A stretch of 30,364 nucleotides of DNA from a virus: IMG/VR virus record IMGVR_UViG_3300031576_000234, positions 1 to 30,364 of that record, one strand, 5' to 3'. Both the position numbers and the translations under genes were made by a program. Each line of letters opens with the position of its first letter. The first letter of the stretch is position 1. Positions 1-30,364 of this stretch are shown piece by piece. The notes beneath the pieces were generated by a model. It saw nothing but the letters and a program-made list of their open reading frames with translations. It was not told where the DNA came from and searched no databases.

Positions 1-89
1 GGAATAACAATCCTGAAAATCTACAAACTCTTTGTGCATATTGCCATGGAGCTAAGCAAAAAATAGATATTGAATTTTGCCCATTATGA
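1..89 (+). CDS. HNH endonuclease, 3' end only (continues from 30042-30326)
   Basis: The frame beginning at base 3 encodes the last 29 residues of the HNH protein whose full copy is at 30042-30326, including the ENLQTLCAYCHGAK segment that holds the second CxxC-H knuckle. It is partial only because the contig is cut here. The TGA stop overlaps the ATG of the following gene as ATGA, so the two are probably translationally coupled on the circular molecule. Confidence 0.9.
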   Translation, partial: NNNPENLQTLCAYCHGAKQKIDIEFCPL

Positions 90-127
90 CCGATGAAAAA
101 GAAAAATCACTCCGCCGAGCGATTAAG
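1..127. repeat. Terminal direct repeat, left copy (contig closure)
   Basis: These 127 bases are identical to 30238-30364. The repeat cuts through the 3' part of an HNH endonuclease gene and the first codons of the next gene, and both reading frames continue intact across the join. That fits a circular molecule, or a circularly permuted one, cut at an arbitrary point. It does not look like a packaged terminal repeat with its own signals. Confidence 0.95.
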
Positions 128-3339: not shown

Positions 3340-4497
3340 ATGGAACCAACCAAACTAACAGAGGAACAGTTGAAAGCGCTCTTGGGCCAGGCTGTAGAAG
3401 CCCGGATCAAGGAGCTCGGATTGGACCAGATCGACCGCAAATTCGGAATGTACCCGGCTCATCTTATCGGCAAGTCGCAGGAGGATCTTGCGAAGCTCGA
3501 CAAGAAGCAGAGAGTAGCGGCCTTTTTCAAGGCTGTGTACCACAGGGACGCCCCGACTTTGGCGAACTTTAAGGCGATGAATGAGGGCACCGGCTCGGCC
3601 GGAGGCTTTGTTGTCCCGGATGAGTTTGCCGCGGAAGTGAACCGCATCGTGGAGGATTTCGGACTCGTTCCGAAGCTCTCGAAGCCGTATCCGATGGGCA
3701 GCGACACGCTGCGCATCCCGCGGCTCTCGGCTTCGGTGACGGTCAGCTATCCCGGCGAAGGCGCGGCAGCGACGGCTTCACAGCCTACGCTCGCCGAGGT
3801 TCTGCTTAGCTCAAAGACTTTGGTCGGAATCACGCCGCTCACAAACGAGCTGCTTGAGGACGCCAACGTCGACCTCGTCGACTTGCTCACCGAGCTTTTC
3901 GCCGAGGCCATCGCGGGAGAGGCGGACAACCAGGGACTTGCGGGTGTCGGGACCCCTTTCACGGGGATTCTCGGGGACGCGGGGGTCTCGGTTGTTACGG
4001 CGCCGACAGGCAACTCGACTTTCGAGCTTGCCTCGACACCGGACAATCTTCGCGACTTGATCGCGCAGGTGAAGCCTTGGGCTTTGCAGGGAGCGGCTTT
4101 CGTCATGCACAGAACAGTCTGGGCGATCGTACAGAAGAAAAAGAGCTCGACCGGCGGCGACTACTTCGCCTCGGCCGCGACTCCAGTTCTCACGCCGTCC
4201 GGAGTAGTGGGCATGCCGAACGCGGTTGCGGGTACCCTTTGGGGATATCCCGTGTACCTTTCCGACAAGATGCCTTCCACAACGGCAGTTTCCACGAAGT
4301 ATATTATCTTCGGCAACCTCAGACATTTGTACTGGGGCCGCCGCAAGGATATCGGCGTGGACATTGCTCGCGAGGGCACGGTCGGAGCGGACAATCTGTT
4401 CGAGAAGAACATGAGCGCGGTGCGCGTGATGCAACGTCATGCAATCGCGGTCGGTCTTCCGGCGGCGTTTGCCGCGTTGAAAACAAGTGCTACTTGA
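3340..4497 (+). CDS. Major capsid protein, HK97 fold
   Basis: This 385-residue protein builds the icosahedral shell. An N-terminal helical segment (to about residue 75) is the expected scaffold-like delta region removed by the upstream protease. The mature core begins near GGFVVPDEFAAEV and continues with the Phage_capsid pattern SKTLVGITPLTNELLEDANVD and a TPFTGIL turn. Length is typical. I prefer ATG 3340; an in-frame TTG at 3322 overlapping the protease TGA would add six residues. Codon use is strongly GC-ending, in contrast to the AT-rich endonuclease gene that follows. Confidence 0.93.
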   Translation: MEPTKLTEEQLKALLGQAVEARIKELGLDQIDRKFGMYPAHLIGKSQEDLAKLDKKQRVAAFFKAVYHRDAPTLANFKAMNEGTGSAGGFVVPDEFAAEVNRIVEDFGLVPKLSKPYPMGSDTLRIPRLSASVTVSYPGEGAAATASQPTLAEVLLSSKTLVGITPLTNELLEDANVDLVDLLTELFAEAIAGEADNQGLAGVGTPFTGILGDAGVSVVTAPTGNSTFELASTPDNLRDLIAQVKPWALQGAAFVMHRTVWAIVQKKKSSTGGDYFASAATPVLTPSGVVGMPNAVAGTLWGYPVYLSDKMPSTTAVSTKYIIFGNLRHLYWGRRKDIGVDIAREGTVGADNLFEKNMSAVRVMQRHAIAVGLPAAFAALKTSAT

Positions 4498-4509
4498 GTT
4501 GAGTATGTA

Positions 4510-4536
4510 TTGACTCTACGATTAAGAGGGTATAAC
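4510..4536 (+). promoter_or_regulatory. Possible promoter overlapping the endonuclease hairpin
   Basis: TTGACT (4510-4515) and TATAAC (4531-4536) are separated by 15 nt, or 16 if the -35 is read as ATTGAC. The -10 ends exactly 8 nt before the ATG at 4545. RNA started here would lack the 5' arm of the hairpin at 4515-4565 and be leaderless or nearly so. The spacing is shorter than ideal. Confidence 0.4.
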
Positions 4537-4565
4537 ATGGCCCCATGGCTATACCCTCTCGTAGA
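4515..4565 (+). promoter_or_regulatory. Hairpin enclosing the start codon of the HNH gene
   Basis: TCTACGA (4515-4521) pairs with TCGTAGA (4559-4565), and GAGGGTATA (4526-4534) with TATACCCTC (4550-4558). Four unpaired bases (TTAA) bulge on the left arm. The apical region can form a further CATGG/CCATG stem (4536-4540 with 4543-4547) that contains the ATG at 4545. The start would be masked in any transcript reading in from the capsid gene. Confidence 0.7.
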
Positions 4566-5117
4566 TGTAAAATCTGCGGCAAAAGATTTTATAAATTGCT
4601 CAATACTTCAAAAATAGAATGGGAAAAATATAGACGATTTTGCTCGGTAAAATGCGCGAATAAAAATAAACTCGGCCGGATTCCTTGGAACAAAGGAAAA
4701 ATTGGGATAATGGTCGCATGGAACAAGGGCATTCCATTCAGCGAAGAAAGTCGGAGGAAAATGTCCGAAGCAAAGCGTGGAAAAAAATGGACAGAATATC
4801 AGCGCAAATCCATTATTCCTTGCTTGCTAAGAGGAATTGAGCATCCGAATTGGAGAGGAGAAAAGGTTGGCTATATGGCGCTTCATTCATGGGTGAAAAG
4901 AAACTATGGAAAAGCCACGTTTTGCGAGCGGTGCGGGATAAAATCTAAACCGAAAATCACTTCAAGAGGCAAGCCGATGAGAAGTAAAAAAAACTATTTT
5001 GAGTGGGCGAATTTGTCTGGTCAATATAAACGTGAACGAAAAGATTGGGCGCAGCTTTGTGTAAAATGTCATTCTTGGCTGGACCATGGTGGCCATATCG
5101 ATTGGAAAATGAGTTGA
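4545..5117 (+). CDS. NUMOD3/HNH homing-type endonuclease (free-standing)
   Basis: This 190-residue protein probably nicks or cleaves DNA to spread itself between related phages. It has an N-terminal zinc ribbon (C8, C11, C33, C37), NUMOD3 DNA-binding repeats at about 47-80 (PWNKGK, WNKGIPFSEESRRKMSEA), and a C-terminal HNH-like zinc domain (C127, C130, C172, C175, H176). It is AT-rich compared with the capsid genes on either side, as expected of a late arrival. It sits between the capsid gene and the next virion gene. Its ATG lies inside a strong hairpin, a classic way to limit expression of such enzymes. Confidence 0.85.
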   Translation: MAIPSRRCKICGKRFYKLLNTSKIEWEKYRRFCSVKCANKNKLGRIPWNKGKIGIMVAWNKGIPFSEESRRKMSEAKRGKKWTEYQRKSIIPCLLRGIEHPNWRGEKVGYMALHSWVKRNYGKATFCERCGIKSKPKITSRGKPMRSKKNYFEWANLSGQYKRERKDWAQLCVKCHSWLDHGGHIDWKMS

Positions 5118-17090: not shown

Positions 17091-17330
17091 ACCCTGGCAG
17101 GGCCGACCACCGTCTCTAAAGGACGACCTGGGGCTTGCGCTTTGGCGCGGCGTCCGGGCTTGCCGGTTCGGGGAGTCCTGGCGGCGGGATGGCTCCCACG
17201 GGATGAATCCTAATAGGGCGCCAGCGTTGAAATTCGGTGCTAAATAGGGGCGATTCGGGGTTATTGGTAGTCTGGTGCTATACAAAGAGGGGTTTGATCG
17301 GTATTCGGGTACGAAAGTGACCTTTGGCAC
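17091..17330. other. Gene-free GC-rich stretch between late and early regions
   Basis: No convincing ORF in either strand. Several hairpins can be drawn: GGACG (17121-17125) with CGTCC (17151-17155), enclosing GCGC-TTTG-GCGC (17137-17148), then a GGGAG/CTCCC stem a little downstream, and the palindrome GGCGCC. Read as RNA it would be the 3' region of the late transcript. It might be a terminator region or structured RNA, but no T-run follows any stem. Confidence 0.4.
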
Positions 17331-17359
17331 TTGACATAATAGGCGGGATATGGTATGGT
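17331..17359 (+). promoter_or_regulatory. Strong sigma70-like early promoter
   Basis: Perfect -35 TTGACA (17331-17336), exactly 17 nt, and -10 TATGGT (17354-17359, 4 of 6). This is the only full -35/-10 pair of this quality in the window. It precedes the run of small early genes. Transcription should begin at about 17366. Confidence 0.8.
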
Positions 17360-17379
17360 GGTAACGTAAAAATTAAGCA

Positions 17380-17445
17380 GTGACCGATTGCCCGGTTGCG
17401 GATAGTTTGATGATTCCGGGCATTGGCGCCGGAATTTTTTTATGA
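17380..17445 (+). CDS. Possible 21-codon leader peptide
   Basis: GTG at 17380 opens a 21-residue frame (MTDCPVADSLMIPGIGAGIFL) that runs through both leader hairpins and ends in a TGA overlapping the next ATG (ATGA at 17442-17445). It starts about 14 nt after the predicted transcription start. There is no clear Shine-Dalgarno, so it may be a chance frame; if translated it would couple ribosome movement to the attenuator. Confidence 0.3.
   Translation: MTDCPVADSLMIPGIGAGIFL
17389..17422 (+). promoter_or_regulatory. Antiterminator hairpin in early leader
   Basis: TGCCCGG (17389-17395) pairs perfectly with CCGGGCA (17416-17422). Further pairs outside are possible after one mismatch. The right arm shares 17416-17419 with the left arm of the downstream terminator, so the two structures exclude each other. 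Confidence 0.6.
17413..17441 (+). terminator. Leader terminator (attenuator) before the first early gene
   Basis: ATTCCGG (17413-17419) and CCGGAAT (17429-17435) form a perfect 7-bp stem with a 9-nt loop. Seven Ts (17435-17441) run directly into the ATG at 17442. This is a textbook intrinsic terminator placed in a 5' leader. Confidence 0.75.
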
Positions 17446-17951: not shown

Positions 17952-18262
17952 GCTGCAGGGAAACGATTGAAAAAAACGACTCTATAAAAAGCGATGAGAC
18001 CTGGATCGTGGAGATCCGGAGCGAGAGGGACGGGCGCATTGTAGTCAGCCACGGGAATGTTCAGGGAGGATTTTTTATCGTGCACAAAAAGGGCGATGGC
18101 GATATGGGAGGTATGGGAGGCACCAATCAGGGCGTGTTCGGCACGGCACCATCGATCGGGGTGTGCCTTTTTAAGGCGCCCGAGCAGTTGGAGCGCATGG
18201 CCATTAAAATCGGAGTACATGATGCGATAAAAAAGACGAGGGAGATGATGGAGAAACTTTGA
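17948..18262 (+). CDS. Hypothetical early protein with Gly/Met-rich loop
   Basis: This 104-residue protein has a beta start (TWIVEIRSERDGRIVVSHG), a GDGDMGGMGGTNQG loop and a C-terminal helix (APEQLERMAIKIGVHDAIKK). Soluble, without known motifs. Its start is coupled to the upstream gene by ATGA. Confidence 0.65.
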   Translation: MSCRETIEKNDSIKSDETWIVEIRSERDGRIVVSHGNVQGGFFIVHKKGDGDMGGMGGTNQGVFGTAPSIGVCLFKAPEQLERMAIKIGVHDAIKKTREMMEKL

Positions 18263-18264
18263 GT

Positions 18265-18657
18265 ATGAGGTACCAAAAAGATTTTTCCGCTCCGATTGAA
18301 AAACGCTTCTATGCGCTGGGAATATCAGTGCGGGCGTTTAGCGATCATTTTGGATTTGGAGATACTTATTTGAGGCTTTTGTTCCGTGGCGGGGCCGTTG
18401 CTTCTCCAAAGTTTTTTTCCAAGCTGATCGCAGCCATATTAAAAGTTGAGCGCTGGCCCTACCTAGCTTCAAAACTCCGTGCAATTACTGCAAAAGACAG
18501 GAGTTTGTGGGCCAGGGGAGAAGCGGCGCGAGTTAGAGATCGGCAGATGATTAAGATGCGGAAAACCGGCGCTAAGCTGCACGAGATTGGAAAGATTTAT
18601 GGCATATCCAAGCAGAGAGTCCAGGCAATAGTTTCCGAATATGAAAAAAACCGATAA
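18265..18657 (+). CDS. HTH-containing early protein
   Basis: This 130-residue basic protein has a C-terminal helix-turn-helix resembling sigma region 4 or resolvase-type HTH (MIKMRKTGAKLHEIGKIYG, then ISKQRVQAIVSEYEK). The N-terminal region (LGISVRAFSDHFGFGDTYLRLLF) might be a second HTH. A TTG at 18259, overlapping the previous stop and better spaced from GGAG, is the alternative start. A transcriptional role is inferred. Confidence 0.7.
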   Translation: MRYQKDFSAPIEKRFYALGISVRAFSDHFGFGDTYLRLLFRGGAVASPKFFSKLIAAILKVERWPYLASKLRAITAKDRSLWARGEAARVRDRQMIKMRKTGAKLHEIGKIYGISKQRVQAIVSEYEKNR

Positions 18658-18844
18658 GCTGACAAAAAGGCAGGTACTTGCGATTCCCGGCCTCGTAAAT
18701 AAGAGGGGCTGGAGCGTCGGCGCCGTGGCGGGATTTTACGGGGTGAGCTGGCAGGCGGTCTGGTACTGGGTAAAGCAGCTGCGGCGGCGCGGTTTTGAAA
18801 TCAGGACCCGGAAAAAAGGGTCTCGGTCTCTGCTGGATTCATGA
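18641..18844 (+). CDS. Small HTH protein (transposase-like fold)
   Basis: This 67-residue basic protein overlaps the previous gene by 17 nt. WSVGAVAGFYGVSWQAVWYW with VKQLRRRGFEI is a helix-turn-helix of the kind seen in transposase N-termini and small regulators. There is no further domain, so it is probably a DNA-binding regulator. Confidence 0.65.
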   Translation: MKKTDKLTKRQVLAIPGLVNKRGWSVGAVAGFYGVSWQAVWYWVKQLRRRGFEIRTRKKGSRSLLDS

Positions 18845-18869
18845 CGGAAATCGGCTATGCTTGGGATGT

Positions 18870-19067
18870 ATGCCGTCTCGAATAAGCCGAACATTCAAGG
18901 CCCCGAAAAACGGGGGATATCACCACCGCGATCATAGGAGCAAAAAGGGCCGGGAGCCGTTGGCGCCGGTTAAAAAGCGCATCCGGGCGCGGTACAAGGG
19001 GCGCATCGAGGAGATGAGGATCGAGGAGGAAGATCGGGAGGCAAGGGATCTTTTCAATCGAATATAA
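18870..19067 (+). CDS. Small basic early protein
   Basis: This protein has 65 residues from ATG 18870: basic start, His/Lys-rich middle (GGYHHRDHRSKKG), charged helix at the end (RIEEMRIEEEDREARDL). The frame is open back to TTG 18795, and that reading adds LCWIHDGNRLCLGC, a possible Cys knuckle; the start is therefore uncertain. It is the last gene before the non-coding region. Confidence 0.55.
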   Translation: MPSRISRTFKAPKNGGYHHRDHRSKKGREPLAPVKKRIRARYKGRIEEMRIEEEDREARDLFNRI

Positions 19068-19096
19068 AAAACCACCGAAGATAATTCGGCGGGTGG
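19065..19096 (-). terminator. Possible terminator for - strand transcripts
   Basis: CCGAA (19075-19079) pairs with TTCGG (19085-19089), and CCACC (19072-19076) can alternatively pair with GGTGG (19092-19096). On the - strand the stem is followed by six Ts. It would stop antisense RNA entering the early genes from the origin region. Confidence 0.35.
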
Positions 19097-19097
19097 G

Positions 19098-19198
19098 AAA
19101 AAATAAAGCTAAATTTTAAATTTTGGTGGGACTTTTATCACCTAGGTTTAATTGGTTGTGGACAGGTCGGGGCATGGATTGTGGACTTGTGGATAACT
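19098..19198. other. Candidate replication origin (DnaA boxes plus AT-rich tract)
   Basis: Three TTGTGGA elements lie within 42 nt of non-coding DNA: TTGTGGACA (19156), TTGTGGACT (19079+100, i.e. 19179) and TTGTGGATAAC (19187). The last contains TGTGGATAA (19188-19196), the exact complement of the bacterial DnaA box TTATCCACA. The first two match at 7 of 9 or so. An A/T-only-rich tract (19098-19124) lies beside them as a possible unwinding element. No phage replication initiator or helicase is seen. Confidence 0.55.
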
Positions 19199-19204
19199 GC
19201 GGCG

Positions 19205-19233
19205 TTGACTTTACTTTTTAGGGCTGGCATGAT
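19205..19233 (+). promoter_or_regulatory. Promoter of the structured RNA
   Basis: TTGACT (19205-19210, 5 of 6), a 17-nt spacer, and an extended -10: TGG (19225-19227) then CATGAT (19228-19233, 4 of 6). The expected start at about 19240 coincides with the first base of the RNA's closing stem. Confidence 0.6.
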
Positions 19234-19239
19234 AGGGTT

Positions 19240-19346
19240 GTTATGTTAAAAGGATTCTCAAAAAGTCGATCGACATTTGGAGAGTACCGTGGAAACACGG
19301 ACTTTTACATAACTCAAATACCGACGGCGTAAGCTGGCGGTTTTTT
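19240..19346 (+). ncRNA. Compact structured small RNA, about 107 nt
   Basis: The transcript folds by eye into a three-way junction. P1: 19240-19252 with 19302-19313, 12 pairs and one bulged T. P2: TCTCAAA (19256-19262) with TTT-G-GAGA (19276-19283), capped by the palindrome GTCGATCGAC. P3: CCGTG-GAAA-CACGG (19287-19300), a perfect stem with a GNRA loop. A terminator hairpin follows. No ORF of any size fits. I recognise no known RNA family. It lies beside the DnaA boxes, so a replication or copy-control role is possible; regulation of host or early mRNAs is the alternative. Confidence 0.65.
19320..19346 (+). terminator. Intrinsic terminator of the small RNA
   Basis: ACCGACGGC (19320-19328), GTAA loop, GCTGGCGGT (19333-19341), then T run to 19346. 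The stem has one A-G mismatch and one G-U pair. This is the clearest stand-alone intrinsic terminator in the window. Confidence 0.8.
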
Positions 19347-19640
19347 GATTGAAAAAAAGGGCAGGATCATGGGGATATTCCACGATGGCCGCGCGCTATG
19401 GGAATTAAGGACGTACGCGGCAACCGCTGACACCTAAAAAATTAAGCGCAAAGCGAAAAGTATCCGGCTCGATGGCCAAGGCTGTCGGCTAGGAGCGCCC
19501 CCGGTAAAGTGTCGCCGTGGCGGGGAAGTAGCCCAGCTCGCTTAAATAGATTCCTTCCGAAAGGAAACCCGAATAAGGGAATGAAGCCGGCCTATTTAAT
19601 TTTTTGTTTTTTTGCCCGATTTCAATCAGGGTTAATGGAA
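19347..19640. other. Second structured, gene-free stretch
   Basis: No convincing gene; the longest sensible frame is 22 codons from ATG 19369. Candidate stems include ATCATGG/CCACGAT (19366-19386, one mismatch), GCCGCG/CGCGGC (19388-19421), GCTC-TGGCC/GGCTA-GAGC (19467-19496), CCCCG/CGGGG (19499-19525) and TTCCTT-CCGA-AAGGAA (19551-19566). A T-rich tract follows at 19598-19613. It could be a second, larger RNA or the leader of the gene at 19646. No clear promoter was seen within it. Confidence 0.4.
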
Positions 19641-19645
19641 TTTCT

Positions 19646-19951
19646 ATGTCAAAAATTGATTTTCCACGAAGGCGAAAACACGGGAGTGAGGCGATAAACT
19701 GGTTGCTTGATTACATGGAGTTTCGATTGGAGCTTCGGCGTCTTGACGACACTGAGAAAACAAACAGACTCTATACTATGCATGCGATAAAAAAGCATGG
19801 GGCGGCGACGGTCAGGCAGATGATAGACGCCGCCGCGGAATCGGAGTTTTGGCGGACGCGCGTCACTTGTATGCGGACGATCTACTACAAGGGCGTTCAA
19901 ATACTTTCCTCCGTGGTTAGGGGCGGAATTAAAAGGGAACGAATATCTTGA
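19646..19951 (+). CDS. Possible replisome-organiser-like protein
   Basis: This 101-residue, basic, helical protein is the first gene after the candidate origin. Its C-terminal part (ATVRQMIDAAAESEFWRTRV followed by YYKGVQILSS) recalls the C-terminal tail of phage replisome organisers, which typically read xxxIxxAxxdxFWrxxilSxxxLxxxfdxL. The match is partial and the usual N-terminal winged helix is absent. A helicase-loader or initiator role fits the position but is inference. ATG 19646 has GGAA 6 nt upstream. Confidence 0.5.
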   Translation: MSKIDFPRRRKHGSEAINWLLDYMEFRLELRRLDDTEKTNRLYTMHAIKKHGAATVRQMIDAAAESEFWRTRVTCMRTIYYKGVQILSSVVRGGIKRERIS

Positions 19952-19952
19952 T

Positions 19953-20411
19953 ATGGATCATGTCGGAGAAATTATAAAAAACGCCGTGAGTAAAAGAATT
20001 TCGGAGGGAATGTTTTTTAAGGATGGTATCAGGGAAATGAAATGCTCCGAATGCGGAGAGAGAGTCGGAACCAGGCAGGCGAAATGCTGGGGACAGGAAG
20101 TCGACGGATTTTTCATGTTCGATTGGCACGACCATGTCTCGCATATTCCGGCCGTTCGGGAATCGTACGGGTTGTCGACGAAGATCCGGAGAGGGGCGGA
20201 TTTTGTCGTGGTGGTTTACGGGAGGCCTTGCTATATCACGGAGATGGAAAAAGAGAAATATCTTGATGCTTTGATGAGGGGGAACAAGATCGTGGAGATA
20301 CGCGGATACGTTTTTGATCGCGTGTATCCGATCATGCCGTACGAGGATTGGGTCGACGAGGAACAGAGAAGAAATAGGCGCGTGGAAGCGGTGCATTTTA
20401 TAGAGGATTGA
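19953..20411 (+). CDS. Hypothetical protein with Cys pairs
   Basis: This 152-residue protein starts 1 nt after the previous stop. It contains CSECGERVGTRQAKCWG, a possible zinc knuckle, an aromatic DWHDHVSHIP stretch, and a beta region (ADFVVVVYGRPCYI). I do not recognise it. Tight linkage to the preceding gene suggests a shared replication or recombination role. Confidence 0.6.
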   Translation: MDHVGEIIKNAVSKRISEGMFFKDGIREMKCSECGERVGTRQAKCWGQEVDGFFMFDWHDHVSHIPAVRESYGLSTKIRRGADFVVVVYGRPCYITEMEKEKYLDALMRGNKIVEIRGYVFDRVYPIMPYEDWVDEEQRRNRRVEAVHFIED

Positions 20412-20412
20412 G

Positions 20413-20508
20413 ATGGGGACAAAGGACTTGCATCGTCCCGGCATCCATGGCAAGATGATCGTGTTCGTGGATTGCCCCGCGTTTTCAAGCTCGTGGGCGC
20501 AACCCTGA
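20413..20508 (+). pseudogene. N-terminal fragment of a small gene split by an HNH gene
   Basis: The frame encodes 31 residues (MGTKDLHRPGIHGKMIVFVD, then CPAFSSSWAQP) before TGA 20506-20508. Its end lies 20 nt before the AP2-HNH gene, and a compatible open C-terminal part resumes after that gene (to 21102). It starts just 1 nt after the preceding stop, as an intact operon gene would. It could instead be a functional microprotein. Confidence 0.45.
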
Positions 20509-20528
20509 CCCAGGAGCTTTTAGTTTTT

Positions 20529-21020
20529 ATGAGAAAGATATATTTATCTAAAGGCAAATATGCGCTCATAGATGATGATGATTTCGAGAGAGTCAGCAAA
20601 TTCAAATGGAGCATGGGTAAAAAATATGCCGTTCGAGGGATTTGGAATGAAAAAATAAAGAAACTTAAAACTGCTTGGATGCATCATTTTGTGCAGGGGA
20701 GATTGCCGCCAGAAGGATTTTGCACCGATCATAAAAATGGAGATCCGTTGGACAACCGGAAAGAAAATCTAAGATTTTGTACAAGATCCCAAAATAATCA
20801 AAATAAAATAAAGAAAAAAGGGAAATCAAAGTTTGTAGGTGTAAGATGGCAAAAAAAAGGAAGTGGATGGGAGGCGCAAATCAATAAAAATGGGAAGCGG
20901 ACATATCTAGGTTATTTTAGGAATGAGATTGAAGCTGCAAGAGCATACGATAAGGCGGCTAAAGAAATTTTTGGGGAGGGTGCGAAAACGAATTTTGATC
21001 TGCGGCGAGATCTACGGTAA
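20529..21020 (+). CDS. AP2-HNH homing endonuclease
   Basis: This 163-residue protein combines an HNH_3-type nuclease (WMHHFVQGRLP at 50-60, CTDHKNGDPLDNRKENLRFC at 65-84) with a C-terminal AP2 DNA-binding domain (about 100-156: FVGVRWQKKGSGWEAQI, YLGYFRNEIEAARAYDKAA). This is the standard layout of phage free-standing homing endonucleases. It is AT-rich relative to both neighbours. The final residues (DLRRDLR) seem to be read from host-gene sequence past the natural AP2 end. Confidence 0.88.
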   Translation: MRKIYLSKGKYALIDDDDFERVSKFKWSMGKKYAVRGIWNEKIKKLKTAWMHHFVQGRLPPEGFCTDHKNGDPLDNRKENLRFCTRSQNNQNKIKKKGKSKFVGVRWQKKGSGWEAQINKNGKRTYLGYFRNEIEAARAYDKAAKEIFGEGAKTNFDLRRDLR

Positions 21021-21102
21021 GGTCTTGCCGGAGCTCAAAAGGGCTTCACTGTCGGGTCGAGCAGTTATTAAAAAATTATTCAATTCAAAGGTTTATGACT
21101 GA
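20989..21102 (+). pseudogene. C-terminal fragment of the gene split by the HNH gene
   Basis: This frame, different from that of the endonuclease, reads RILICGEIYGKVLPELKR, then ASLSGRAVIKKLF and ends at TGA 21100-21102, overlapping the next gene's start at 21095. It has no start codon and looks like the true tail of the fragment at 20413-20508. The left edge is uncertain. Confidence 0.45.
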
Positions 21103-22285
21103 TAAATTCAAGAACGAGATCGACGCGACTGACGGATTTTTCGCGCCGATAGGCAACGCCAAGCCGTGGTTCAAGATGAACCTGTTTGGATTCGCGGGAT
21201 CCGGCAAATCGTACACGGCGGCATTGACGGCCGTAGGATTGCATCAGCGGATCAAATCGCAGAAGCCGGTGATCATGTTCGACACCGAGACGAGCTCTAA
21301 GTTTCTCAAGCCGATGTTCGAGGCGGCGGGGATAGCGGTGCTGGTGAGAGAGAGCCGATCGTTGGCAGATCTCAAGGAGACGATGAAACGATGCCGGGAA
21401 GGGTTATCCGACATCTTGCTCGTCGACTCGCTGTCGCACGTCTGGGAGTCATTCCTGGAGGCCTACAAGCAGGCGCCGACGAAATACGGGAGGGGAGCAA
21501 AGACGCGATTGGAGTTCCAGGATTGGGGAATCATAAAGCCGACATGGAAGGCCGAGTTTTCCGACCCGTTCGTGCGCGATCCGGTGCACATGATAGTCAC
21601 TGGCCGCGCCGGGTATGAGTACGAGAACGAGATCAACAAGGACACCGGCAAGCGTGAGATATTCAAGTCGGGAGTTAAAGAAAAAGTGGAAGGGGAAACT
21701 GCTTACGAATCCGATCTGCTGGTTCTCATGGAGCGATTGCAGGAGATGGAGGGCGGGGAGATCAAGCGGGTCATGCGCAGGGCAGTGGTCATCAAGGACC
21801 GATCGACGCTCCTGGACGGCAAGACGTTCGAGAACCCGGCATTCGAGGATTTCGCCCCTGCGGTGGATATCATCCTCAAAGATCCGATCAAGCGCGAGCA
21901 GACCGCGGAGCTGGATGCAGCCGAGTTGGTCAAAGTTGAGGACGGCAGGCGCGAATGGGTCAGGCGCAAGGACATCGCGTTGGAGAAGATCGAGGCCTAT
22001 CTGGTCGCGGTATGGCCCGGGCAGACCTCCGAGATGAAGCAACTCAAGGTCGGGGCGCTCGAGAGCGCGTTCGGCACGCCGAGCTGGACGGAGATATCCG
22101 GCATGAAACCGGAGACGCTGGAGGCGGGACTCACGAAGCTGCACGAGTTCGTGGAAAAGATCATCGCCTCGAAAAAGGTCGCGGAAGCAGAGGCGGAGGA
22201 ATCACCGGCCAAAAAGGCAATGAAAGCGGGAATAGCCAAGGGCAAGGCGGCTTTCGAGGCCGAAAAGGAAAAGATGAGTGCTTAA
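21095..22285 (+). CDS. RecA/Sak4-like AAA ATPase
   Basis: This 396-residue protein has Walker A GFAGSGKS (32-39), Walker B-like DILLVDS (106-112) and the general layout of phage nucleotide-binding proteins of the Sak4/AAA_24 type, which bind single-stranded DNA and promote annealing or recombination. The C-terminal ~120 residues are helical and charged, ending in an Ala/Lys/Glu tail. AAAGG lies before ATG 21095. It is the only clear recombination or replication ATPase in the genome. Confidence 0.8.
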   Translation: MTDKFKNEIDATDGFFAPIGNAKPWFKMNLFGFAGSGKSYTAALTAVGLHQRIKSQKPVIMFDTETSSKFLKPMFEAAGIAVLVRESRSLADLKETMKRCREGLSDILLVDSLSHVWESFLEAYKQAPTKYGRGAKTRLEFQDWGIIKPTWKAEFSDPFVRDPVHMIVTGRAGYEYENEINKDTGKREIFKSGVKEKVEGETAYESDLLVLMERLQEMEGGEIKRVMRRAVVIKDRSTLLDGKTFENPAFEDFAPAVDIILKDPIKREQTAELDAAELVKVEDGRREWVRRKDIALEKIEAYLVAVWPGQTSEMKQLKVGALESAFGTPSWTEISGMKPETLEAGLTKLHEFVEKIIASKKVAEAEAEESPAKKAMKAGIAKGKAAFEAEKEKMSA

Positions 22286-30041: not shown

Positions 30042-30326
30042 ATGAGCGGACGTTTCAAAGGAGAAAAAAGAAAAAGGACACCATGTTATCGAGGATGGCG
30101 CTGGGATGAGACCAAAAAAGAAATCATAAAGAGAGACGGTTTGCGGTGCGTGGAGTGCGGGATGAACCAAACCGAGCATTTGATTAAAACAGGGCAACCG
30201 CTTCAGGTTGATCACATACTTGCTTACAATGTTTCTCGGAATAACAATCCTGAAAATCTACAAACTCTTTGTGCATATTGCCATGGAGCTAAGCAAAAAA
30301 TAGATATTGAATTTTGCCCATTATGA
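30042..30326 (+). CDS. HNH endonuclease domain (C-terminal part of broken gene)
   Basis: This 94-residue HNH protein has C36/C39 (CVEC), LQVDHI (His58), NNPENLQTLCAYCHGAK (C77, C80, H81). ATG 30042 is the first ATG; TTG 30027 in the same frame is possible. Alone it would be a minimal HNH nuclease lacking the usual DNA-binding modules. The end overlaps the next gene as ATGA (30323-30326, equal to 86-89). Confidence 0.8.
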   Translation: MSGRFKGEKRKRTPCYRGWRWDETKKEIIKRDGLRCVECGMNQTEHLIKTGQPLQVDHILAYNVSRNNNPENLQTLCAYCHGAKQKIDIEFCPL

Positions 30327-30364
30327 CCGATGAAAAAGAAAAATCACTCCGCCGAGCGATTAAG
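30238..30364. repeat. Terminal direct repeat, right copy (contig closure)
   Basis: Identical to bases 1-127. It contains the 3' end of the HNH gene and the first 14 codons of the structural gene that continues at 86. Confidence 0.95.

What the first reader, a model, noticed from the sequence alone, without database searches (positions are those of the whole stretch)
19205..19346. Promoter-to-terminator unit for an unrecognised folded small RNA
Seen in sequence: TTGACT-N17-extended CATGAT, a predicted start exactly at the first base of a 12-bp closing stem, two internal stems (one a perfect GNRA hairpin), then an intrinsic terminator. The unit is about 107 nt, has no ORF and is complete in itself. 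Inference: a phage regulatory RNA. Its position next to DnaA boxes recalls copy-control RNAs of plasmids, but it could act on host or early mRNAs.
Basis: partly seen in the sequence, partly recalled or inferred. Interest (0 to 1): 0.85.

Follow-up and report, generated by a model that had tools for sequence, protein, structure and literature searches.

The report
Orphan structured phage RNA before replication genes
A virus that probably infects ultra-small Patescibacteria carries a compact, strongly folded RNA gene with its own start and stop signals just before its DNA-handling genes; the structure is convincing on paper, but it has no known relatives, so its role (most likely controlling the genes behind it) remains inferred.

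Summary
The anatomy is real. A promoter at 19205-19233 (fifth best on the + strand) is followed seven bases later by a 74-nt three-way junction: a 12-bp closing stem, a 12-bp palindromic arm and a GAAA-capped arm. An intrinsic terminator ends at 19346. The fold beats all 200 shuffles (z -5.5) and nearly all of the genome. One stated fact is wrong: a 29-codon ATG ORF (19243-19332) runs through the unit.

The RNA matches nothing in Rfam, in about 137 related viral or prophage records and genomes, in 380 genomes of the likely host phylum (Patescibacteria), or in phage and plasmid collections. Covariation, the decisive test, therefore cannot be done.

A second promoter, short RNA and terminator unit lies at 17331-17442, and its promoter region resembles this one (29/44 bases). 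Hfq and ProQ were found in none of 96 sampled Patescibacteria genomes.

My best reading is a prematurely terminated leader of the operon holding replication and packaging genes, controlled at the terminator (0.4). A stand-alone protein-binding small RNA is nearly as likely (0.35). An origin-linked role has only positional support. It is a new, orphan member of a known kind of thing.

The parts
19188..19196 (+). DnaA box TGTGGATAA (perfect), ending just before the -35; partial copies TTGTGGAC just upstream
19205..19233 (+). Promoter: -35 TTGACT, 17-nt spacer, extended -10 TGG-CATGAT
   Evidence: rank 5 of 30,333 + strand positions
19208..19251 (+). 44-nt promoter/start-region element similar (29/44, ungapped) to 17329-17372
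   Evidence: 0.9% of random 44-mers, 2.1% of AT-matched ones, have a partner this good
19240..19313 (+). Three-way-junction domain of the RNA, 74 nt, predicted start at 19240; P1 closing stem 19240-19252 with 19302-19313 (12 bp, one bulged U)
19254..19285 (+). P2 arm, 12 bp with two mismatches, loop GAUC within palindrome GTCGATCGAC
19287..19300 (+). P3 arm, perfect 5-bp hairpin with GAAA (GNRA) loop
19320..19346 (+). Intrinsic terminator: ACCG-A-CGGC-GTAA-GCTG-G-CGGT followed by a T tract; does not share strands with P1
19243..19332 (+). 29-codon ATG ORF inside the RNA, stop codon in the terminator loop; coding signal undecided
17331..17442 (+). Second unit: promoter TTGACA-17-TATGGT (17331-17359), ~80-nt RNA with one hairpin, terminator ending in T7 (17412-17442)
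18259..18841 (+). Two small helix-turn-helix genes between the two units, candidate regulators of the two similar promoters
19646..22282 (+). Start of the co-directional gene block behind the RNA: two unknown genes, HNH-AP2 endonuclease, AAA_24/Sak4-like ATPase (21095-22282); it continues to terminase, portal and capsid
19072..19092 (-). Terminator-like hairpin on the minus strand; no minus-strand gene that it would serve was found nearby

Best explanation
The unit is one of two similarly built phage promoters that each make a short, prematurely terminated transcript in front of a gene block. The 19205 promoter starts RNA at 19240. The first 74 nt fold into a three-way junction and most polymerases stop at 19346, leaving a stable ~107-nt RNA. 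Expression of the block from 19646 onward (small genes, HNH, ATPase, then terminase and capsid genes) from this promoter needs read-through of that terminator, so the junction, or a factor that binds it or the polymerase, most likely acts in cis to set read-through, as in phage leader antitermination. SHOWN by computation: promoter match, fold, terminator, the second unit, co-directional genes. INFERRED: the start site, transcription itself, that the terminator is regulated, and the role of the junction.
For: The promoter is the best + strand match in the 19000-19700 region (11.7 bits); the next best downstream of the terminator scores 8.0. All nearby genes run in the same direction. A second unit with a similar promoter region (29/44 bases) also ends in a terminator directly before genes. 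The closing stem starts exactly at the predicted first base, which suits a domain that folds as it leaves the polymerase. Position and size resemble HK022 putL RNA, ~70 nt with two stem-loops just downstream of an early promoter (PMC9378689). Small HTH genes lie between the two units; one weakly matches a late transcriptional activator family (E 0.0064).
Against: The three-way junction and the terminator do not compete for the same strands, so a classical switch is not visible. The next gene starts 300 nt beyond the terminator. No antiterminator protein was identified. No relative shows the same layout; in L071 the strong promoter sits directly before its gene with no terminator between. The promoter similarity is modest (2% chance in AT-matched controls), and its register differs from the best -10 call of the second unit by 5 nt.
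Confidence: 0.4

Rival explanations
1. Stand-alone small RNA acting in trans, most likely by binding a protein of phage or host (a decoy or scaffold), rather than by base-pairing to mRNAs. The closing stem and terminator protect it.
For: The whole RNA from first base to terminator is one highly stable structure with paired ends, like known stable RNAs. It has its own promoter and terminator and lies in a 578-nt gap. Hfq and ProQ are absent in 96 of 96 sampled Patescibacteria and no phage mRNA start pairs unusually well, which favours protein binding if it acts in trans.
Against: No homologue in any relative, unusual for an important trans-acting RNA. A similar promoter and terminator unit sits in front of another gene block. 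No binding partner known.
Confidence: 0.35
2. Origin-linked RNA: the gap is the replication origin (AT-rich stretch, DnaA boxes) and the RNA controls initiation or primes it, as copy-control RNAs do.
For: Perfect DnaA box just before the -35; exact boxes also lie near the ATPase gene in the two closest ATPase relatives, both Uhrbacteria prophages (L043, L059). A minus-strand terminator at 19092-19072 would suit an antisense transcript.
Against: No GC-skew switch marks an origin here. The other exact boxes are inside genes. No iterons, no initiator gene adjacent, no convincing minus-strand promoter beyond one that would give a ~35-nt RNA. No antisense partner.
Confidence: 0.1
3. The unit is a short mRNA for a 29-aa peptide, read almost leaderless, perhaps a leader peptide whose translation opens the terminator.
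For: ATG ORF 19243-19332 ends in the terminator loop. Codon score lies between coding and off-frame values, with only 7% of off-frame segments as high.
Against: 12% of real coding segments score as low or lower, so the score does not decide. An open frame of this length is common by chance. No Shine-Dalgarno lies inside the predicted transcript, the start codon is buried in P1, and no phage record has a match.
Confidence: 0.07
4. Chance or DNA-level structure: inverted repeats serving as protein binding sites or hairpins in single-stranded DNA, with no functional RNA.
For: P2 contains a perfect 10-bp DNA palindrome; no homologue or covariation supports an RNA.
Against: Promoter, fold and terminator coincide in register; no second copy of the palindrome in the genome within one mismatch; fold ranks in the top 0.07% of the genome.
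Confidence: 0.08

Closest known systems
HK022 put RNAs (putL/putR), cis-acting antitermination RNAs of a lambdoid phage
   Same: Phage-encoded, ~70-nt folded domain just downstream of an early promoter, ahead of genes that need terminator read-through (PMC9378689)
   Different: put is two adjacent stem-loops without a closing stem; here the arms are enclosed by a 12-bp stem and a terminator follows within a few bases. No sequence relation tested; action on polymerase unknown
Lambda late leader (pR'-tR', '6S' RNA) released by Q antitermination
   Same: Promoter, short terminated RNA, then a long co-directional gene block (comparison from general knowledge)
   Different: No Q-like protein identified; the lambda leader is longer and is not a compact three-way junction
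Lambda oop and ColE1/R1-type copy-control RNAs
   Same: Short terminated RNA near a possible origin (from general knowledge)
   Different: Those act by antisense pairing with an overlapping opposite transcript; no such partner was shown here
phi29 packaging RNA (pRNA)
   Same: Phage three-way junction with paired ends (from general knowledge)
   Different: Known from phi29-group phages; no Rfam hit here

Membership tests
Any Rfam 15 family | Covariance-model score at or above the family's gathering threshold | tested here: not met
   No hit at gathering threshold in the window; permissive search of 18850-19700 gave only two chance-level hits outside the RNA
HK022 put-type antitermination RNA | Located just downstream of a phage early promoter, ahead of co-directional genes | tested here: met
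   Promoter 19205-19233, RNA from 19240, genes from 19646; 'early' is inferred
HK022 put-type antitermination RNA | ~70 nt made of two stem-loops with the put fold | tested here: not met
   74-nt domain with two arms, but enclosed by a 12-bp closing stem
HK022 put-type antitermination RNA | Binds RNA polymerase and suppresses termination | not testable with these tools
   Needs in vitro transcription
Riboswitch-type attenuator | Terminator strand mutually exclusive with an alternative helix of the leader | tested here: not met
   The 5' domain alone is -24.5 and the terminator alone -11.4 kcal/mol; they do not share strands and no competing fold is favoured
Hfq- or ProQ-dependent base-pairing sRNA | Host chaperone present | tested here: not met
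   Hfq 0 of 96 and ProQ 0 of 96 Patescibacteria genomes, controls positive; the host itself is inferred
Hfq- or ProQ-dependent base-pairing sRNA | Pairing with a translation start above background | tested here: inconclusive
   Best net interaction -8.7 kcal/mol among 47 starts, not distinguished from chance; host mRNAs not tested
Plasmid/phage copy-control antisense RNA | Overlapping transcript on the opposite strand | tested here: inconclusive
   Minus-strand terminator at 19092-19072, but the only minus promoter matching the consensus scan nearby would give ~35 nt
Type III toxin-antitoxin RNA | Tandem RNA repeats ahead of a ToxN-like gene | tested here: not met
   No tandem repeat; no Pfam or PHROG match for the next gene
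Conserved structured RNA of this phage group | Covarying homologues in related phages | tested here: inconclusive
   No homologue found, so covariation cannot be counted

The most novel reading that the evidence does not exclude
The first example of a new structured RNA class in phages of Patescibacteria: a three-way-junction RNA that binds RNA polymerase or a phage protein and controls read-through into the replication block, in hosts that lack the usual small-RNA chaperones.
Probability: 0.15. Interest if true: 0.75.

Novelty: new member of a known kind. Interest (0 to 1): 0.42.

Why it matters
Very little is known about how phages of ultra-small Patescibacteria control their genes, and these hosts appear to lack Hfq and ProQ. 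A compact, testable control RNA with a paired second unit gives a concrete entry point. If it is a cis-acting antitermination RNA it would extend a mechanism best known from lambdoid phages to a very distant host group.

Tried and rejected
Exact core pattern in viral contigs: no hit. blastn, nhmmer and a single-sequence covariance model (R1) in ATPase, TerL, MCP and portal relatives, including records with MCP 62-72% identical: nothing above chance. R1 in 380 Patescibacteria genomes: three at E <= 0.01, about what chance gives. The best raw scores (L062, L063) come largely from an ordinary terminator with similar letters. L004's promoter-hairpin-terminator looked analogous, but is one long hairpin plus a small one, without a junction. 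Descriptor scan of 3.0 Mb for other junction-plus-terminator RNAs: only loose look-alikes. Antisense to the start of gene 19646 (24 nt, 71% complementary): not better than background. P2 palindrome as a repeated operator: single copy. Structured RNA in 19347-19645, which is GC-rich: fold not better than shuffles (z -0.05) and no Rfam match. Hammerhead core: CTGANGA is absent by eye. HEARO/omega RNA: no Rfam match; the neighbouring HNH protein is an AP2-HNH endonuclease. Single-strand origin or mobile-repeat explanations: no second copy found. Not pursued: structure predictions of the HTH proteins, since too few homologues were found for an alignment.

Full report
SETTING. The window is a virus record from IMG/VR with an exact 127-bp terminal repeat (1-127 = 30238-30364), so it is most simply a complete circular genome of 30,237 bp, GC 50%. 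The capsid gene is HK97-like. Nearly all genes run on the + strand. The closest ATPase relatives (68-71% identical) are prophages sitting directly after secA in two Uhrbacteria genomes (L043, L059), and most other genome relatives are from Patescibacteria. The gene order ATPase, methyltransferase, terminase, portal, protease, capsid is shared. I infer a patescibacterial host; the exact host is unknown. No cultivated phage is close (terminase and capsid best matches under 30% identity).

THE OBSERVATION. The fold is -37.1 kcal/mol with z -5.5 and no shuffle of 200 as good. Most pairs have probability 0.9 or more; the pairs beside the bulge and the P2 mismatches are weaker, 0.5-0.75. After GC correction the unit ranks with the top 0.07% of 3,026 windows over both strands. 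The promoter ranks 5th of 30,333 + strand positions; a site that good falling in a given five-base slot has a chance of about 0.0008. The agreement of start site, closing stem and terminator is therefore unlikely to be accidental. A looser scan of 3.0 Mb finds 182 windows of the broad junction-plus-terminator shape, so the case rests on the combination of signals, not on the shape alone.

CORRECTIONS. The unit does contain an ORF: ATG at 19243, 29 codons, stop in the terminator loop. Its codon usage is undecided (12% of real coding segments are as low, 7% of off-frame segments as high), it has no match in phage records and its start codon is buried in P1. I regard it as probably incidental. 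The GAAA loop of P3 is a GNRA loop, and so is the terminator loop GUAA; the P2 loop GAUC is not.

SEARCH FOR RELATIVES. Rfam gave nothing. I used all eight viral-collection scans: one exact-pattern scan, one neighbour-gene scan that found nothing and six that gathered relatives by ATPase, terminase, capsid and portal; one genome scan was also used. A single-sequence covariance model searched in the fetched loci and in about 137 whole records and genomes, and in 380 Patescibacteria genomes, found nothing above chance. blastn and nhmmer agree, as do the phage and plasmid collections. The closest relatives by capsid (72%, L071) have a different gene content in the corresponding region. The RNA is thus an orphan in a variable region, and its base pairs cannot be tested by covariation.

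SURROUNDINGS. The RNA sits in a 578-nt gap (19068-19645). Upstream lie an AT-rich stretch, two partial DnaA-like sites and a perfect box at 19188. Exact boxes also lie near the ATPase in L043 and L059, but no GC-skew switch is seen. A minus-strand terminator at 19092-19072 is unexplained. The best + strand promoter of the genome lies at 17331-17359 and is followed by an ~80-nt RNA ending in a strong terminator at 17412-17442, just before the next genes. A 44-nt ungapped stretch covering promoter and start region matches between the two units at 29 of 44 bases; 0.9% of random and 2.1% of AT-matched 44-mers have so good a partner. The pattern searches used patterns derived from these two sites, so their low chance expectation is circular and I do not count it. 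The similarity is suggestive rather than strong, and the matching register is 5 nt off the best -10 call of the second unit. Two small helix-turn-helix genes lie between the units.

HOW IT MOST LIKELY WORKS. Two models fit. In the first, the RNA is the terminated leader of the gene block from 19646 and its junction, or a factor, sets read-through; position and size recall HK022 putL (PMC9378689), and a second unit of similar design precedes another gene block. Against it, junction and terminator do not share strands, so it is not a riboswitch-type switch, and no antiterminator was identified. In the second, it is a stand-alone RNA that binds a protein. Base-pairing control is less likely: Hfq and ProQ are absent in 96 of 96 sampled Patescibacteria genomes with positive controls, the RNA has few unpaired bases, and pairing with phage gene starts is unremarkable. 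I give the leader model 0.4 and the stand-alone model 0.35. An origin role (0.1), a peptide (0.07) and a DNA-level or chance origin (0.08) remain.

VERDICT. The feature is a convincing, uncharacterised phage RNA unit in an understudied host group, but an orphan without expression data. It is a new member of a known kind (phage leader or small RNA), not a demonstrated new class.

Noticed in passing
window 17331-17442: Second promoter, short RNA and terminator unit; its promoter is the best + strand sigma-70 match in the genome and resembles the 19205 promoter region over 44 nt.
   Followed up: partly
window 1-127 and 30238-30364: Exact 127-bp terminal repeat: the genome is most simply complete and circular (30,237 bp).
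   Followed up: yes
L071 124; L076 5136 and 8892; L026 13424; upstream of the ATPase gene in L003, L005, L007, L043, L045, L059: A short motif AAGGTCG recurs ahead of phage genes in Patescibacteria phages, in several cases 6-15 nt downstream of a good -10 box (5 of 26 non-coding sites score 9 bits or more, against 2.4% of random sites); perhaps a start-site or operator element.
   Followed up: partly
window 19072-19092, minus strand: Strong minus-strand terminator-like hairpin with no minus-strand gene to serve; may end an antisense transcript of the RNA region.
   Followed up: no
window 19347-19645: 300-nt GC-rich gap with two short open stretches (22 and ~35 codons, the second without a start codon) and no family match; function unknown.
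   Followed up: partly
window 2674, 5428, 7069, 19188: Four exact TGTGGATAA DnaA boxes, all on the + strand, against 0.19 expected.
   Followed up: partly
L043, L059 (secA); L005, L007 (gap); L011 (after a tRNA): Related prophages of Patescibacteria sit directly after secA, gap or a tRNA gene with the ATPase gene near that end.
   Followed up: partly
window 4461-4607: Another strongly folding stretch between the capsid gene and an HNH gene, comparable in rank to the RNA.
   Followed up: no
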